Shown: positions 23,068-28,071 of the stretch, in pieces
How the letters are laid out: each line of letters begins with the position of its first letter
Position numbering within the stretch: position 1 is the stretch's first letter
Assembly: GCA_017882465.1 (NCBI GenBank)
Contig: JADGPN010000010.1
Location: 1 to 37,291 of the forward strand
Reading direction: 5' to 3'
DNA from: Solirubrobacteraceae bacterium
GTDB taxonomy: Bacteria; Actinomycetota; Thermoleophilia; Solirubrobacterales; Solirubrobacteraceae
DNA: 37,291 bases
Program-made: the position numbers and the translations under genes
The notes under the pieces: generated by a model
What the model was told of the DNA's origin: nothing
What the model saw: only the letters and a program-made list of their open reading frames with translations
Databases searched by the model: none

Positions 23068-24243
23068 ATGAACTTCGATCTCGCCGACCATCACCAGCTC
23101 TTGCGACGGACCGTGCGCGACTTCGCCGAACAGGAGGTCGCGCCCGTGGCCGAGGAGCTGGACCGGACCAAGTCGTTTCCCTATGAGATCGTCCGCAAGC
23201 TGGGCGAGCTCGACCTGATGGGCATCCCGTTCCCGGAGCGCTATGGCGGCGCCGGCGGCGACTCGCTCGCGTACTCGATCGCCGTCGAGGAGCTGGCCAG
23301 AGTCGACTCGTCGGTCGCGATCACGCTGTGCGCCCACACCTCGCTGGGAACTCAGCCGATCTACCTGTTCGGTTCCGAGGAACAGAAGCTCGAGTGGATG
23401 CCGCGCCTGTGCCGCGGCGAGCGGCTCGGGGCGTTCGGGCTGACGGAGCCCGAGGCGGGCTCGGACGCCGGCAACACGCAGACCCGGGCGGTGCTCGAGG
23501 ACGGCGAGTGGGTGATCAACGGCACCAAGCAGTTCATCACCAACGCCGGGACCGACATCTCGGGGGTGGTGGTGATCACGGCGGTGACCGGGCAGCAGGA
23601 TCACTCGGCCGCGGCCCGATCCGGCGACAGGCCCGAACGTGAGATCTCCAACCTGCTGGTGGCCAACGGCACCCTCGGTTACGAGCAGGGCGAGCCGTAT
23701 CGGAAGATGGGCTGGAACGCCTCCGACACCCGGCCGCTGATGTTCACCGATTGCCGTGTGCCGGCCGAGAACCTGGTCGGTGCGCGCGGGGCGGGGCTCC
23801 GTCAGTTCTTCCACATCCTCGACGTCGGGCGCATCGGAGTTGCCGCCATGGGCGTCGGCCTCGCTCAGGGCGCTCTCGACCAGGCGCTGGCCTACGCCAA
23901 GGAGCGCCGTGCGTTCGGGAGGCCGATCTCGAAGTTCCATGCCATCCAGGCCAAGCTGGTCGACCTCTCAACTGAGATCGAGGCGACCAGGCTGCTGGTG
24001 CACAAGGCGGCCTGCCTCAAGGACCTGGGCCGCAACTTCACCCTGATCGCCGCCCAGGCCAAGCTGAAGAGCGGCCGCCTCGCGGTGCGCGCGGCGGACG
24101 AGGCCGTGCAGATCCACGGCGGGTACGGCTACATCGAGGAGTACCCCGTGTGCCGCTTCTACCGTGACGCGAAGATCCTCACCATCGGCGAGGGGACCGA
24201 CGAAGTCCAGGAGATCGTCATCGCGCGGGCTCTCGGCGTGTGA
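23068..24243 (+). CDS. Acyl-CoA dehydrogenase
   Basis: An FAD enzyme that introduces the 2,3 double bond in acyl-CoA and hands electrons to ETF. The 391-residue protein shows FGLTEPEAGSDAGNTQTRA (FAD-binding region, about 128-146), YRKMGWNASDTRPLMFTDC, the QTHGG-like QIHGGYGYIEEYPVCRFYRDAK and EGTDEVQE near the C-terminus, whose first glutamate is at the base position seen in medium-chain enzymes. The usual PVER reads PVCR here. I use ATG 23068, which fits family starts. A GTG five codons upstream (23053) is possible. The next gene overlaps at TGATG. Chain-length preference cannot be judged. Confidence 0.94.
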   Translation: MNFDLADHHQLLRRTVRDFAEQEVAPVAEELDRTKSFPYEIVRKLGELDLMGIPFPERYGGAGGDSLAYSIAVEELARVDSSVAITLCAHTSLGTQPIYLFGSEEQKLEWMPRLCRGERLGAFGLTEPEAGSDAGNTQTRAVLEDGEWVINGTKQFITNAGTDISGVVVITAVTGQQDHSAAARSGDRPEREISNLLVANGTLGYEQGEPYRKMGWNASDTRPLMFTDCRVPAENLVGARGAGLRQFFHILDVGRIGVAAMGVGLAQGALDQALAYAKERRAFGRPISKFHAIQAKLVDLSTEIEATRLLVHKAACLKDLGRNFTLIAAQAKLKSGRLAVRAADEAVQIHGGYGYIEEYPVCRFYRDAKILTIGEGTDEVQEIVIARALGV

Positions 24244-24839
24244 TGCGAGCGCCGGTGCGATGGCTGCTGGCGCTCGCGGGGGTCGCCGGCGCGGTCGGCG
24301 CCGGCGCGGGGCCGGATGTCCCGCCGGCGTCTGGCCAGGTGCCCGCTCCCGGACCCCGCCTCGAGGGCAGGTTCGCGATGGCGGGCCGGGTGATCGTCGC
24401 GACGAGGGTGCCGGGCGAGCACACCGGACAGCTGGTGCTCCGAAACTGGACCTTCCTCGCGCCCTGTCCGACCGGCACCTGCATCGACGCGGTCCTGGTG
24501 CGCGCCCGCGCGGGCGCCGCCGATAGGCTCATCCTCCAGCGCCGGCGAACCGGGTACTACGTCGGATCAGGTCGCTTCTACGCCCCGCTGCGGTGCGGGA
24601 AGAGGACCGATCCCCGAGGCGAGCTGGTCCCCTTCACCATCGCCGTCCAGGTGGTCGCGGCCACACACGGCCCCAGAGCCACCGCCACCCGCCTCCGGGC
24701 CTCGTACGCGAATCGTTCGCGTACGAACCGCACGCCGTGCTTCTCCGTGCTGGGGCACGATTCGGCCAGCTATCACGGGCACCTGATCGGGCGGTTGGGC
24801 CCGCTGCTGGACGCCTCGGCCGGGGCCGGGGATCAGTAG
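24243..24839 (+). CDS. Secreted protein of unknown function
   Basis: A 198-residue protein with a signal peptide (RAPVRWLLALAGVAGAVGAG) and an exported beta-rich part that contains paired cysteines: CPTGTC near 77-82, one in PLRCGK and one in TPCFSVLG. I recognise no family. It begins at ATG 24243, overlapping the stop of the acyl-CoA dehydrogenase (TGATG), so it is probably co-translated, although an export protein has no obvious link to the enzyme. Its 3' end overlaps the convergent small membrane gene by seven bases. Confidence 0.7.
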   Translation: MRAPVRWLLALAGVAGAVGAGAGPDVPPASGQVPAPGPRLEGRFAMAGRVIVATRVPGEHTGQLVLRNWTFLAPCPTGTCIDAVLVRARAGAADRLILQRRRTGYYVGSGRFYAPLRCGKRTDPRGELVPFTIAVQVVAATHGPRATATRLRASYANRSRTNRTPCFSVLGHDSASYHGHLIGRLGPLLDASAGAGDQ

Positions 24840-25096: not shown

Positions 25097-25573
25097 CTAC
25101 CCCGGAGCCGAGATCCGGAGCGAACCGAGGATGTGATTGAGCGCGGCGAGCCGGGCCCGCCTGACCCCGCGGCCGCCGGACATGACCACGTAGAGGCACA
25201 GGGGGCGCCCTGAGGCGCTGAAGAAGTGCTGCATGCCGAGCTGGCCCGGACGGGGGTGGGCGAGACGGTCGCGGCCGAATCGGGTCGGATCGAGCGGAAG
25301 CGGGATCCGCTTGGACGCGAACAGGCCGGCACCGGCCTCGAGCCCGCGGCCCGTCTCGTACTCGGTCAGGGCCAGGAACACGCCCCCGGCGGGCATCGCC
25401 GCGGTGCTCTCGTCCCCGAACTCGCCGTCGCGCAGCGGCAGCGCGTAGCTCGCCGCATGCAGGGTGGCCACCGTTCCGGTGCGGCGAAACAGGCGCCCGC
25501 TCCAGCCCCGGGGGAGCTGGATCATCAGCCCGTGGGCGTCGAGCTTGACGGCCCCGCCGGTCCCGGCGCTCAC
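25097..25573 (-). CDS. Small soluble protein of the mau-like operon, function unknown
   Basis: This 158-residue protein has no signal peptide or membrane helix. It starts LDAHGLMIQLPRGWSGRLF and contains a motif-like stretch PGQLGMQHFFSASGRPLCLY and LAALNHILGSLRI at the end. The alternating hydrophobic pattern suggests a mixed alpha/beta fold (PsbP/Mog1-like is one guess). The start GTG at 25573 overlaps the stop of the membrane gene before it (GTGA), which also fixes the start, because the same frame is open for another 250 codons of nonsense upstream. Coupled translation suggests it works with the membrane protein. It is the last gene of the operon. Confidence 0.72.
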   Translation of the reverse strand: MSAGTGGAVKLDAHGLMIQLPRGWSGRLFRRTGTVATLHAASYALPLRDGEFGDESTAAMPAGGVFLALTEYETGRGLEAGAGLFASKRIPLPLDPTRFGRDRLAHPRPGQLGMQHFFSASGRPLCLYVVMSGGRGVRRARLAALNHILGSLRISAPG

Positions 25574-26157
25574 GCCAGGCTCCCGATGATCGCCACCGCG
25601 AGGGTCGCACCCATCACCGCCATCCCGGCCCGGGCCACCGGCAGCCGCCAGCGCAGCAGCGACGCGTGCAGGGCGACCAGTTGCTCCGGCCGGCGGACGT
25701 GCGCCGCAGCCAGCAGGCTGAGACCGCGAACGACGCCGAAGCAGCCGAAGACGAGCGCGCCGAGGACGGGATCGCCGGTGAGCAGGGCCGCGATCAGCGC
25801 GACATAGGTCGCCGCGCTCGAGACGATCGTGGTGAAGCCGAGCCCCAGCTGGGCCCCGAAGCCGAACCCGTACACCCAGCCCCGGTACTCGTCCAGCCAG
25901 CGCTCGTCGACCTGGCGCCGGGGACCAGGGATGCGGGCCGGGCCGGCGTCGAGCGCGAGCGCGGCCAGCACGGCCACGGCCAGTGCGGCCAATCGCCCCC
26001 GGGTCCCCAGCGCCGGCAGCGCCAGCGCTCCGACCGCGCCGGCCAGCGCCCCGGCCGCGGCCGCGGCGACGGTGGCTCCGAGCACGAAGGCGATCACCGT
26101 GATCCCCCAGGTGGCATGGCGGCCCCGCTCTCCGAGCGGGGTGATGCTGGCCAGCAT
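25570..26157 (-). CDS. Polytopic membrane protein of the mau-like operon (LysE/CcdA/MauF-like topology)
   Basis: A 195-residue protein with about six hydrophobic segments and the conserved-looking loop RWLDEYRGWVYGFGFGAQLG (about 85-104), followed by two helices ending GCFGVVRGLSLLAAA. MauF of methylamine clusters and CcdA/DsbD are also small six-helix membrane proteins that move reducing power across the membrane, but here only one membrane cysteine (in FGCFG) is present, not a pair. The resemblance is by topology and context only. ATG 26157 starts nine bases behind the micro-ORF. The downstream gene overlaps by four bases. Confidence 0.72.
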   Translation of the reverse strand: MLASITPLGERGRHATWGITVIAFVLGATVAAAAAGALAGAVGALALPALGTRGRLAALAVAVLAALALDAGPARIPGPRRQVDERWLDEYRGWVYGFGFGAQLGLGFTTIVSSAATYVALIAALLTGDPVLGALVFGCFGVVRGLSLLAAAHVRRPEQLVALHASLLRWRLPVARAGMAVMGATLAVAIIGSLA

Positions 26158-26166
26158 CGACTCGCC

Positions 26167-26247
26167 TCAGGGAGACCAAGCCGACCTGATCGCGCCGATC
26201 ACGGCCGCCGTGGAGCCGAGCACGACGAGCACGACGAGCGCGCTCAT
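26167..26247 (-). CDS. 26-residue hydrophobic micro-ORF in the mau-like operon
   Basis: The ATG at 26247 overlaps the stop of the MauD-like gene as ATGA, and 26 codons later TGA ends nine bases before the next ATG. The peptide MSALVVLVVLGSTAAVIGAI plus six residues is one membrane helix with a basic, Trp-containing end. Without it the operon would have an unexplained 86-base gap while all other junctions overlap. It could be a membrane subunit, or serve only to carry ribosomes to the next gene. Confidence 0.55.
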   Translation of the reverse strand: MSALVVLVVLGSTAAVIGAIRSAWSP

Positions 26248-26924
26248 GACCCGGGATAGAGACTCGGATGATCCAGCGTGATGCCCGCCGCGGCCAGCTT
26301 CTCGTCGACCCTCCGGTCACGCCCGCGCACGCTTTCCACGCGTGCCGTGGCCATCCGCTCGTCCTCGATCGCGTCCGTGACCATCGAGGTCAGCTGCGGC
26401 CACGTGGTGGCGACGCCCTCGCCGCGCACGTCGCCGTCGACGAGCACGAAGTACGGCGCGCCCGGGACCTCGTAGTCCTGCCAGGCCTGCGAGGACATCA
26501 CCACCGGGACGTCATCGGGCGCGAGCGAGCGCAGCCGGGATGGGCTCTCGCGCTCTGAGCCGTGGGTCACGATCACGGTCTGGACTCCAGCGGGCAGAGG
26601 CTGATCGCCACCGCGTCCGAGGCTGTCCCAGAAACCCGCGCAGGTCCCGCAACCGCTGGTCAGAAAGGCGAGCAGGGTTGGCCGCGTGGCGCCGCCCTCG
26701 AAGGCCAGCTTGACGAGATCGCCCTCCGGGGTCGCGCCGGCCACCTCCGCGGCCGTGGCCCCGCGAGCCCCCCTCACGGGCGGGGCCACCGCGATCTGTC
26801 CCGCGCTGCCCGGCTCGGCCGGCCCGAGCCGGCGGAGGATCTCGGCGTGACTGCGCAGCAGCCCCGCCACCAGCAGGACGAGCAGCACCAGCAGCACCGT
26901 CTCCACGGCCACCAGCGCGACCAT
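26244..26924 (-). CDS. MauD-like membrane-anchored thioredoxin-fold protein
   Basis: The 226-residue protein has an N-terminal membrane anchor (about 2-21) and a thioredoxin-like domain with the redox motif CGTC in LLAFLTSGCGTCAGFW (about 95-110) and the cis-proline region EVPGAPYFVLVDG (about 168-180). In methylamine clusters MauD has this design and is needed for correct disulfides in the light chain. The domain probably faces outward. The start ATG overlaps the stop of the preceding cysteine-rich protein gene (TGATG). GTG at 26927 is an equal alternative. A C-terminal tail of about 40 residues (RVESVRGRDRR...) goes beyond the usual fold. Confidence 0.82.
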   Translation of the reverse strand: MVALVAVETVLLVLLVLLVAGLLRSHAEILRRLGPAEPGSAGQIAVAPPVRGARGATAAEVAGATPEGDLVKLAFEGGATRPTLLAFLTSGCGTCAGFWDSLGRGGDQPLPAGVQTVIVTHGSERESPSRLRSLAPDDVPVVMSSQAWQDYEVPGAPYFVLVDGDVRGEGVATTWPQLTSMVTDAIEDERMATARVESVRGRDRRVDEKLAAAGITLDHPSLYPGS

Positions 26925-27559
26925 CACGCCCCGCCGCCGCCCGGGAGCGCGACAGCCAGACCCTCGAGGCAGCCTGCCTCGTGCTGGCAGGTGTTGTCGT
27001 CGATCATCTCAGTCGCGTTGCAGCCCAGCCCGCTCACCGTGGCCGGGTGCTGGCAGATCACCAGCCGGCACACCACCTCGGTCGTGGCGGCGACGTGCGT
27101 GTTGCACTGTCCGTAGCGGAATTGGTTGCAGGCCACCCGGCGGTGCCTGCAGTCATGGTTCGCGCACTGGCAGCCACCTGGATAGGCGTGCCCCGGGATC
27201 CGGTTGCAGTCGAGGATGTAGCGAACGCCCTCGGCGTGGCACAACCCGTGGCCCTTGTAGTTGGTGCACTTCCACCACCCGGCCACGTAGGAGCCAGACG
27301 GGCAGACGTTCTTCCCGTGCTCGATCTCGCAGCAGAACGCCGTGTAGCCGTCGGTGCAGCTGGTGCCGGGAGGGCATCGACCGGGCGAAATCACGGCCCA
27401 AGCGGTGCCGGGACGCACCAGGTAACGGACCGGGGCCACCGCGAACGCCGATCCGGCCACGGCAGCCCGGGCCAGGGCGCTGCGCCGCGAGAGCCTGCGG
27501 TCGAGAGCCCCGCCGAGCGAGTCGGCCATCCGCTGCGTGAGGCTCCGGCCCGTCCTCAT
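26924..27559 (-). CDS. Tat-exported 18-cysteine protein resembling methylamine dehydrogenase light chain
   Basis: This 211-residue protein begins with a long twin-arginine leader (RRLSRRSALARAAVAGSAFA, twin Arg at 25-26), ending near TAWA. The mature part has 18 cysteines (62, 68, 76, 77, 86, 98, 107, 118, 130, 132, 137, 144, 152, 164, 169, 180, 191, 197). By eye it follows MauA: CTDGY, FCCE, CPSGSYVAGWWKC, YILDCN, GGCQC. In MauA two tryptophans form the TTQ cofactor. Here W95-W96 stand near the first, but the second site reads RVACNQF with no Trp, and no other Trp is in the mature chain. So a TTQ enzyme is unlikely. Start ATG overlaps the mauE-like stop (ATGA). Confidence 0.8.
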   Translation of the reverse strand: MRTGRSLTQRMADSLGGALDRRLSRRSALARAAVAGSAFAVAPVRYLVRPGTAWAVISPGRCPPGTSCTDGYTAFCCEIEHGKNVCPSGSYVAGWWKCTNYKGHGLCHAEGVRYILDCNRIPGHAYPGGCQCANHDCRHRRVACNQFRYGQCNTHVAATTEVVCRLVICQHPATVSGLGCNATEMIDDNTCQHEAGCLEGLAVALPGGGGA

Positions 27560-28071
27560 TGCGAGCTCCAGGCACTCCAGGCGGCCGGCAGCTCGGTGTA
27601 GGCGATCACGGTCGCGTAGGCCGCGCCGGCGATGCCCGCCAGCAGCGAGGCGGCGAGCACCGGCGGCTGCCCGAGCACCCACGTCAGACCGTGCGGCGGC
27701 CACGCCACGCCCGCCGCAGCGAGCACGGCGAAGGCGGCATTCAACAGCGCGTGCAGGTTCGAGGCCGGCGCCTGTGTGTCGCCGAAGCATCCACACGACG
27801 AGGCGCGCCGGGTGAGCATCAGCGCCACGCCGGAGAGGGCCAGGAAGGTCAGCGCAAGGAGCGCGCAGTTGACCGAGCTGGGCGCCGGCACCACCCACAC
27901 CCCGAGCGCCAGCTCGAGGCTCGCGAACGCGCGCACCGGCACGACGCTCGCCGTCAGACCGGCTCCGGCGAGCGCCACGGCAGCGGTCGACGGCGCGCGC
28001 AGCTTGGCCACTCCCGTCGCGCACAGGACCAGCGCCGCGACCAGGACCGGTGCCGTCAGAGCCTGGGCCAC
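27556..28071 (-). CDS. MauE/DoxX-like redox-associated membrane protein
   Basis: The 171-residue protein has four or five membrane helices, begins with GVAKLRAP after the first helix and has the cysteine motif SSCGCFGD (about 91-98) facing one side, followed by a long helix starting NLHALLNAAF. That is the pattern of MauE, which together with MauD supports disulfide formation of the methylamine dehydrogenase small subunit. The start GTG at 28071 lies four bases behind the meaB stop, so it is read from the same mRNA. It heads a run of overlapping genes (see 25097-27559). Confidence 0.85.
   Translation of the reverse strand: MAQALTAPVLVAALVLCATGVAKLRAPSTAAVALAGAGLTASVVPVRAFASLELALGVWVVPAPSSVNCALLALTFLALSGVALMLTRRASSCGCFGDTQAPASNLHALLNAAFAVLAAAGVAWPPHGLTWVLGQPPVLAASLLAGIAGAAYATVIAYTELPAAWSAWSSQ

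What the first reader, a model, noticed from the sequence alone, without database searches (positions are those of the whole stretch)
25097..28071. A mau-like operon without methylamine dehydrogenase heavy chain: dedicated export and disulfide module
Six genes in a row overlap or nearly touch (junctions ATGA, TGATG, ATGA, 9 bases, GTGA): MauE-like, Tat-exported 18-Cys MauA-like protein, MauD-like thioredoxin, 26-aa peptide, six-helix membrane protein and a 158-aa soluble protein. In known mau clusters MauD and MauE are needed to form the light chain's disulfides, while MauB and MauG make the enzyme. The latter two are absent here, as are amicyanin and cytochrome genes. I infer a system whose product is the cysteine-rich exported protein itself, with an unknown role at the cell surface (structural, redox or metal-binding).
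Basis: partly seen in the sequence, partly recalled or inferred. Interest (0 to 1): 0.85.

Follow-up and report, generated by a model that had tools for sequence, protein, structure and literature searches.

The report
Selenium-containing membrane protein hidden in operon
Two neighbouring "genes" in this actinobacterial operon are very probably one membrane protein that carries the rare amino acid selenocysteine, a MauF-type protein that seems to help a cysteine-rich protein mature on its way to the cell surface.

Summary
The gene row is real, but its reading needs a major correction. The "26-aa peptide" and "six-helix membrane protein" are one gene (25570-26247, minus strand). An in-frame TGA (26167-26169) sits where orthologues have Cys (WSP-U/C-G). 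The fused protein is a MauF homologue, so this is a UGA/selenocysteine form of MauF. Of 68 distinct orthologues beside the cysteine-rich gene, 61 have TGA and 7 Cys; no other stop occurs. The codons between TGA and the later ATG are conserved as protein, and hairpins follow the TGA. The window's genome has selA, selB, selD and tRNA-Sec. selA occurs in 39 of 45 TGA genomes tested but 1 of 13 Cys genomes (few independent switches, so a phylogenetic test lacks power).
MauE, a Tat-type Cys-rich protein, MauD, MauF and a fifth protein recur together in Actinomycetota in several gene orders. mauB was found in 0 of 59 such genomes, mauG in 0 of 20. Outside Thermoleophilia the Cys-rich protein is mostly longer, often with cell-wall repeats (LGFP, CWB2). 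A 119-family selenoprotein inventory lists nothing like it. Function is inferred.

The parts
27556..28071 (-). MauE-like membrane protein, 171 aa, with the invariant Cys-Gly-Cys motif
   Evidence: PF07291 39.3 bits over cut-off 27; K19, C89, C91 invariant in 25 aligned homologues; hhalign to proteobacterial MauE 98.2%
26924..27559 (-). Tat-type cysteine-rich protein, 211 aa, 18 Cys; the likely product (substrate) of the module
   Evidence: translation; TAT_signal_seq 16.0 bits against cut-off 16.7, so just below; homologues in the 88 other loci rows, 7 of them duplicates; twin Arg, 14 Cys and an adjacent Trp-Trp pair conserved in at least 90% of 88 aligned rows, duplicates included
26244..26927 (-). 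MauD-like membrane-anchored thioredoxin-like protein with CxxC
   Evidence: TIGR02661 6.8e-06, below cut-off; CxxC invariant in 25; hhalign to MauD 98.4%
25570..26247 (-). MauF homologue, one gene read through an in-frame TGA; replaces the '26-aa peptide' plus 'six-helix membrane protein'
   Evidence: continuous with Cys in orthologues; hhalign to MauF 99.3%, E 5e-20; profile A4 finds Paracoccus mauF at 6.9e-24; model of the read-through protein pLDDT 87.6
26167..26169 (-). in-frame TGA, predicted selenocysteine codon (Sec27), in W-S-P-U-G-E-S
   Evidence: TGA in 61 of 68 distinct loci, Cys (TGT/TGC) in 7, no TAA or TAG
26125..26139 (-). candidate SECIS hairpin: CCGCUC-GGN-GAGCGG, at positions 31-45 counted from the T of the TGA
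   Evidence: all 6 pairs in 44 of 61 TGA rows, 5 in 6 rows, 2-3 in 11 rows; UUC..GAA compensatory change in 6 rows; same position but other bases in a second MauF family, 5 or 6 pairs in 11 of 11 TGA rows
26143..26158 (-). second conserved hairpin GAUGCU-NNNN-AGCAUC; Ser codon AGC
   Evidence: AGC in 61 of 61 TGA rows and 2 of 7 Cys rows; 97.2% of cells paired but no covariation
25097..25573 (-). 158-aa protein of unknown fold, no export signal seen by eye, part of the conserved set
   Evidence: hits in 81 of 89 loci rows; no PDB match at E <= 1 and no convincing Pfam match

Best explanation
Shown by sequence: the locus encodes a five-gene module, MauE - Tat-type Cys-rich protein - MauD - MauF - 158-aa protein. 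Its MauF gene is interrupted by a UGA that is conserved exactly at the redox-active Cys position, in genomes that mostly encode selenocysteine insertion. Inferred: the ribosome reads this UGA as selenocysteine, giving a selenoprotein MauF of about 225 aa. MauE (CGC), MauD (CxxC) and MauF (a single Sec or Cys in the membrane, DsbD_2-like) act as a dedicated membrane-to-outside thiol/disulfide relay. I think it most likely that MauF passes reducing equivalents (or resolves wrong bridges) through a mixed selenosulfide with MauD, while MauE supplies oxidation, so that the Cys-rich protein gets its disulfides right at or after Tat export. The product then stays at the cell surface; in many relatives it is fused to cell-wall repeats.
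For: Cys/Sec pairs: TGA 61, TGT 5, TGC 2 of 68 distinct rows. The Gly codon after the TGA uses all four third bases (35/12/9/5) and the next two residues are conserved, so the stretch between TGA and ATG evolves as protein. selA over cut-off: TGA genomes 5 of 7 and 34 of 38; Cys genomes 0 of 2, 1 of 5 and 0 of 6 with MauF elsewhere. Own genome: selA, selB, selD and tRNA-Sec with anticodon tca. Hairpin at 31-45 in most TGA rows, with compensatory changes, and again with other bases in a second MauF family whose 10 Cys rows keep 0-3 of 6 pairs. MauF homology. Module conservation. Wall repeats.
Against: Six of 45 tested TGA genomes gave no selA (all six are MAGs). In the first set selB was over cut-off in only 4 of 7 TGA genomes and tRNA-Sec was called by ARAGORN in 3 of 7. 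Few independent switches: the tree needs 3 changes and a phylogenetically paired test has no power. Hairpin: 11 of 61 TGA rows (all those with GTC) keep only 2 or 3 of the 6 pairs as drawn, fewer than the 4 that 5 of 7 Cys rows of the same family keep; in the slide control, shifts of +2 and +3 reach a higher covariation score, though far fewer cells pair. AGC is also kept in 2 of 7 Cys rows. The sel genes lie on other contigs of a 757-contig genome. No protein, redox or selenium data exist here; the direction of electron flow is a guess.
Confidence: 0.8

Rival explanations
1. The TGA is a true stop; the 26-aa helix peptide and the six-helix protein are made separately by reinitiation at the ATG 9 bases on, and work as a split MauF.
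For: An ATG follows the TGA after 9 bases in 60 of 61 TGA rows; overlapping starts are used elsewhere in the operon.
Against: TAA and TAG never occur in 61 rows. The three codons between TGA and ATG evolve as protein with a free third base in the Gly codon. Cys replaces the stop in 7 rows plus 6 more genomes. TGA follows selA: 39 of 45 against 1 of 13 (table). One row has CTC instead of that ATG (L017).
Confidence: 0.04
2. The Cys-rich protein is a genuine methylamine- or aralkylamine-dehydrogenase light chain with a TTQ cofactor, pairing with a heavy chain elsewhere.
For: Same partners MauE, MauD, MauF; similar twin-Arg leader; hhalign 94.8% when the leader is included; local CPPGT...W...C likeness.
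Against: mauB 0 of 59 over cut-off; mauG 0 of 20; no PF02975 in the own genome, though that search had no ringing control; only one conserved Trp site, an adjacent WW pair, so no counterpart of the second TTQ Trp (the two TTQ Trp are recalled); mature-region profile probability 3.2%.
Confidence: 0.05
3. The module is a RiPP-like or secreted-peptide maturation pathway: the Cys-rich protein is a precursor that is processed and released rather than a wall protein.
For: MauE/MauD homologues occur in candidate RiPP clusters of Streptomyces without other mau genes (PMC7794033, passages seen). In the 23 Thermoleophilia-type rows the protein is at most 230 aa, so has no room for a wall module.
Against: The product is about 200 aa with 14 conserved Cys and in 56 of 58 other rows is 280 aa or longer; 6 of 10 scanned have LGFP or CWB2 repeats, which fits a lasting surface protein.
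Confidence: 0.08
4. Same selenoprotein MauF, but the relay is purely oxidative (disulfide formation), with MauF as terminal oxidant partner.
For: MauE has been speculated to form disulfides in the light chain (PMC7794033 passage); the only invariant redox residue of MauF is the single Sec/Cys, with no second invariant Cys.
Against: The DsbD-like superfamily (PF13386 matches 15 of 25 members at E <= 1) is known for reduction (recalled, not tested).
Confidence: 0.3

Closest known systems
MauF of the mau cluster of Paracoccus denitrificans and other Proteobacteria
   Same: Profile match over 187 columns (hhalign 99.3%, E 5e-20), the LSTWSPCG-type motif, neighbours mauE, mauD and a Cys-rich light chain with a twin-Arg leader
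   Different: Sec codon in place of the Cys; Actinomycetota; no mauB or mauG found in the genomes tested
MauA, light chain of methylamine dehydrogenase (PF02975)
   Same: Twin-Arg leader, many Cys, CPPGT...W...C stretch
   Different: No Pfam match, no second conserved Trp, mature part not significantly similar, wall repeats in many relatives
DsbD/CcdA superfamily (PF13386, PF02683)
   Same: 15 of 25 members match PF13386 at E <= 1, best 5e-11; 2 match PF02683
   Different: No second invariant Cys; the window member itself is under the cut-off (18.4 of 24.9 bits)
Known prokaryotic selenoproteins (119 families or subfamilies in PMC13188914, Table 1)
   Same: UGA at a redox site with Cys homologues; the list has a rhodanese/DsbD-fusion-like selenoprotein TsoB
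   Different: No MauF, CcdA or methylamine entry in the table as read; TsoB has two Sec in UxxxxU
MauE/MauD-containing candidate RiPP clusters of Streptomyces (PMC7794033)
   Same: MauE and MauD outside methylamine metabolism
   Different: The passages seen name neither MauF nor selenium

Membership tests
Selenoprotein | in-frame UGA with protein-level conservation on both sides | tested here: met
   61 of 68 rows TGA, context W-S-P-U-G conserved
Selenoprotein | Cys in orthologues at the UGA position | tested here: met
   7 loci rows plus 6 genomes
Selenoprotein | bacterial SECIS hairpin just downstream of the UGA | tested here: inconclusive
   favoured: hairpin at 31-45 in two MauF families with different bases and compensatory changes. 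Against: 11 of 61 rows do not form it as drawn, slid structures score higher on covariation. No Rfam or bSECISearch test was run
Selenoprotein | selA, selB, selD and tRNA-Sec in the genome | tested here: met
   all four in G000; incomplete in several related MAGs
Selenoprotein | Sec found in the protein or 75Se label | not testable with these tools
   needs an isolate
MauF | sequence homology over most of the length to mau-cluster MauF | tested here: met
MauF | a part in making methylamine dehydrogenase | not testable with these tools
   mauB was not found
MauA / PF02975 | match to the family model | tested here: not met
   no match for 9 members; single sequence none
MauA / PF02975 | two Trp that form TTQ | tested here: not met
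   only an adjacent WW pair conserved at 90% or more in 88 rows
MauA / PF02975 | MauA fold | tested here: inconclusive
   model pLDDT 45.6
Methylamine dehydrogenase system | heavy chain MauB | tested here: not met
   0 of 59 genomes over cut-off, positive control rings
Methylamine dehydrogenase system | MauG | tested here: not met
   0 of 20 genomes, positive control rings
CcdA/DsbD transmembrane relay | pair of membrane Cys (recalled) | tested here: not met
   one invariant Cys/Sec only among 25

The most novel reading that the evidence does not exclude
MauF is a widespread, unlisted selenoprotein family of Actinomycetota that drives two sister selenium-dependent maturation systems: the one in the window, and a MauE-MauD fusion / Cys-rich protein / long MauF system in the same class. 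The invariant Trp-Trp pair of the wall-displayed Cys-rich domain becomes a new protein-derived redox cofactor, so that these bacteria carry a selenium-matured electron-transfer protein on their surface.
Probability: 0.12. Interest if true: 0.93.

Novelty: new variant of a known kind. Interest (0 to 1): 0.78.

Why it matters
If true, a selenium-dependent step sits in the maturation of a surface protein in many Actinomycetota, including genera with named isolates in the scan: Phycicoccus, Pedococcus, Knoellia, Kineosphaera and Piscicoccus. It would add a multi-helix membrane protein to the selenoproteome. It gives MauF a function beyond methylamine oxidation, with the redox residue pinpointed by natural Cys/Sec swaps. 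And it makes the question of what MauD, MauE and MauF do to a Cys-rich client testable in bacteria without the dehydrogenase.

Tried and rejected
MauA by sequence: Pfam, NCBIfam, PDB phmmer and PDB profile searches gave no MauA-type match for the Cys-rich protein. MauA by structure: the model was too poor to use; a fold search with it was asked for but that library was not available. MauF by structure: Foldseek against PDB gave no match at E <= 0.001; the second aligner was not available. The own-genome PF02975 search had no ringing control, so it shows nothing alone. No relatives of the Cys-rich protein in plasmids or viral contigs. Plain RNA folds of single sequences were not convincing (z -1.90 to +1.51). 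RF01852 hits at gathering score include tRNA-Ser, so only ARAGORN calls with anticodon tca were counted. A split MauF by reinitiation was considered and rejected (see rivals). The 158-aa protein stayed unassigned.

Rows dropped before counts: 7 loci that duplicate genomes already held (L078, L080, L084-L087, L144), judged by equal contig lengths. 14 of 89 loci rows have no MauF beside the cluster: L068, L075, L077, L097, L104, L123 are cut by contig ends (judged from coordinates); L081 shows only MauE and the Cys-rich gene; seven (L100-L103, L114, L120, L134) have the rest of the cluster, of which L100 and L103 also run to or start at a contig end. The genome scan returned 80 relatives, which is also its cap, so more may exist. 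selA was tested in 50 of the 80, chosen to include all five Cys rows not yet tested, all seven clusters without MauF, and 38 TGA rows. The printed list of full-length Cys-rich proteins was cut; lengths were recounted.

Full report
WHAT IS THERE. The junctions described are correct. Pfam confirms MauE; NCBIfam gives a weak MauD and a just-below-threshold Tat signal.

THE PEPTIDE AND THE MEMBRANE PROTEIN ARE ONE GENE. Searching 299 genomes of the same class with the Cys-rich protein gave 9 genomes including the window's own. The eight others hold the same families in the same order (MauE in L013 and L015 only clearly by profile, in L011 cut by the contig end; the fifth gene is weak in L017 by tblastn). 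In two of them (L013 and L015) the membrane protein begins with the 26-aa stretch in one open frame and has Cys, codon TGC, where the window has TGA; the other six have TGA at the same place. A start codon of this frame overlaps the mauD stop in the window and in 42 of 68 distinct rows (the window counted), Cys rows L013 and L015 among them.

SCALE. A scan of the public genome collection with the alignment gave 80 loci, which is also its cap. By my reading of the titles they are Actinomycetota (Solirubrobacterales, Nitriliruptoraceae, Acidimicrobiia, and isolates of Phycicoccus, Pedococcus, Knoellia, Kineosphaera, Piscicoccus, Conexibacter and Aquihabitans) except L134, a MAG titled Thermoanaerobacterales. 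Solirubrobacterales and Conexibacter belong to Thermoleophilia; G160, in the window's genus group, has the contig length of Conexibacter sp. DBS9H8, so I take the window as Thermoleophilia. Over 89 loci rows (80, the 8, and the window; 7 are duplicates) the families were found in: Cys-rich 89, MauE 86, MauD 85, 158-aa 81, membrane 75. Gene order varies: in Nitriliruptoraceae and Intrasporangiaceae rows the Cys-rich gene is last; in many Acidimicrobiia it precedes mauD. So the set travels as a unit while its order changes.

THE UGA. Of 68 distinct membrane-gene rows, 61 have TGA, 5 TGT, 2 TGC, none TAA or TAG. Between the TGA and the later ATG, the Gly codon uses GGC 35, GGT 12, GGG 9, GGA 5; the next residue is Glu in 57 of 61; then Ser in 61 of 61. 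That is protein-coding evolution across the TGA. A Ser codon at +7 is AGC in 61 of 61 TGA rows and in 2 of 7 Cys rows.

HAIRPIN. At positions 31-45 (TGA = 1-3) most TGA rows form CCGCUC-GGN-GAGCGG. Six rows change CUC..GAG to UUC..GAA, a compensatory change; three have the G-U intermediate. Counted over 59 distinct rows with both hairpins, 91.9% of cells pair against 35-50% when the structure is slid; covariation exceeds all 500 shuffles, but sliding by +2 or +3 gives a higher covariation score, so that score alone is not proof. All six pairs form in 44 of 61 rows, five in 6, and only two or three in 11, which are exactly the 11 rows with GTC. Cys rows of this family keep 4, 3 or 2 pairs (5, 1 and 1 rows), so the contrast within the family is modest. 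The first hairpin (12-27) is almost invariant and shows no covariation. Independent support comes from a second MauF family (below): its 11 TGA rows all form 5 or 6 pairs at the same place with different bases, its 10 Cys rows 0 to 3.

MACHINERY. The window's genome has selA, selB and selD over cut-off and a tRNA-Sec with anticodon tca, on other contigs. In the first set of nine: TGA genomes, selA 5 of 7, selB 4 of 7, selD 6 of 7, ARAGORN tRNA-Sec 3 of 7, at least one of the three proteins in 7 of 7; Cys genomes 0 of 2 for all, one of them a single-contig chromosome. In 50 of the 80 scan genomes: selA in 34 of 38 TGA genomes, 1 of 5 Cys genomes, and 0 of 7 whose cluster lacks the membrane gene. 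Six of those seven hold the membrane gene elsewhere, and all six have Cys (TGC or TGT); in the seventh (G306) none was found. Together: TGA 39 of 45, Cys 1 of 13 (Fisher p 2.4e-7; table again). This treats genomes as independent. On the tree the Cys state needs 3 changes, and a test on independent pairs has at most 3 pairs and no power.

IDENTITY. The fused protein is MauF: profile comparison with three MauF proteins from mau clusters gives 99.3%, E 5e-20, over 187 columns with the shared TWSPCG motif, and a profile of 25 members finds Paracoccus mauF at 6.9e-24. 15 of 25 members match DsbD_2 at E <= 1, best 5e-11; the window member is under the cut-off. The read-through protein folds with mean pLDDT 87.6 and the former peptide as helix 1. 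There is no PDB fold match at E <= 0.001. The Sec/Cys is the only invariant Cys, unlike the two-Cys CcdA relay (recalled).

THE EXPORTED PROTEIN. Across 88 rows (duplicates included), twin Arg, 14 Cys and an adjacent Trp-Trp are conserved at 90% or more. With its leader it matches MauA at 94.8%, without it at 3.2%, so the link to MauA is a hint. mauB: 0 of 59 cluster genomes over cut-off, with one sub-threshold partial hit in G311; mauG: 0 of 20; both with a ringing Paracoccus control. The protein is at most 230 aa in 23 Thermoleophilia-type rows and 280 aa or longer in 56 of 58 other rows. Of 10 of these longer proteins scanned, 5 have LGFP repeats (one of them CWB2 as well), 1 has CWB2 alone, 1 has DUF4214, and 3 match nothing. 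LGFP repeats are known from actinobacterial wall proteins (recalled); Pfam names CWB2 a cell-wall binding domain. Hence a surface role.

A SISTER SYSTEM. The MauF profile also hit more distant proteins: 54 of 299 class genomes match in all. In 21 of 21 such loci looked at, the WSP[U/C]G motif is present, 11 with TGA and 10 with Cys. Of 14 neighbourhoods listed, 11 show a MauE-MauD-type fusion and 9 a protein with 10 or 11 Cys and a twin-Arg leader (by eye), next to a MauF-like protein that is mostly longer (430 aa or more) (MauE and thioredoxin domains seen in one). So UGA in MauF is not confined to one system. selA was not tested for this set.

MECHANISM. Shown: gene set, UGA/Cys exchange, link to selA, conserved redox residues (MauE CGC, MauD CxxC, MauF U/C). 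Inferred: translation of UGA as Sec; a relay that sets disulfides in the Cys-rich protein. That MauE and MauD are essential for methylamine metabolism in Paracoccus, with a speculated disulfide role for MauE, was seen only as cited in PMC7794033 (passages). The direction of the relay is a guess; I favour a reducing or isomerising role for MauF.

NOVELTY. PMC13188914, Table 1 (section 7, parts 1 and 2 read) lists 119 families or subfamilies and none is MauF-like. Term searches inside PMC12013277, PMC9312934 and PMC5029168 (passages only) and full-text searches of the open library (listings only) showed no report of a MauF or CcdA-type selenoprotein. NCBIfam release 20 has no model that fits. 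Subscription papers and preprints were not searched.

Noticed in passing
L172-L192 and L193-L208 (class relatives): A second MauF family, 11 of 21 loci looked at with an in-frame TGA at the same Cys position, mostly beside a MauE-MauD fusion and a protein with about 10 Cys (motif ...SWYRCC...DCC...RINGD...GYC...VFC...); a sister system worth its own study.
   Followed up: partly
L100-L103, L114, L120, L134: Clusters without mauF beside them; six of seven genomes hold a Cys mauF elsewhere and none of the seven has selA, as if mauF and the cluster parted where selenocysteine is not used.
   Followed up: partly
L129 (G302): The only Cys-type genome with selA; its mauF context is SPCGESLQ and lies last in the cluster.
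   Followed up: no
L017 / L144: A second copy of the 158-aa gene family lies upstream of MauE, and the Cys-rich protein is the most divergent of the first nine.
   Followed up: no
L076:1982-3103: mauF appears in overlapping repeated pieces, possibly an assembly duplication.
   Followed up: no
G163:C89:9436-9840: A weak MauF-like hit lies on the contig that also holds selA, selB, selD and tRNA-Sec.
   Followed up: no
window 24240-24839 (+): Convergent 199-aa gene, no Pfam match; related ORFs next to the cluster in 14 loci rows.
   Followed up: no
L088-L091, L095, L097, L105: These loci share a further secreted-looking protein (S-layer-homology-like by eye) near the Cys-rich gene.
   Followed up: no
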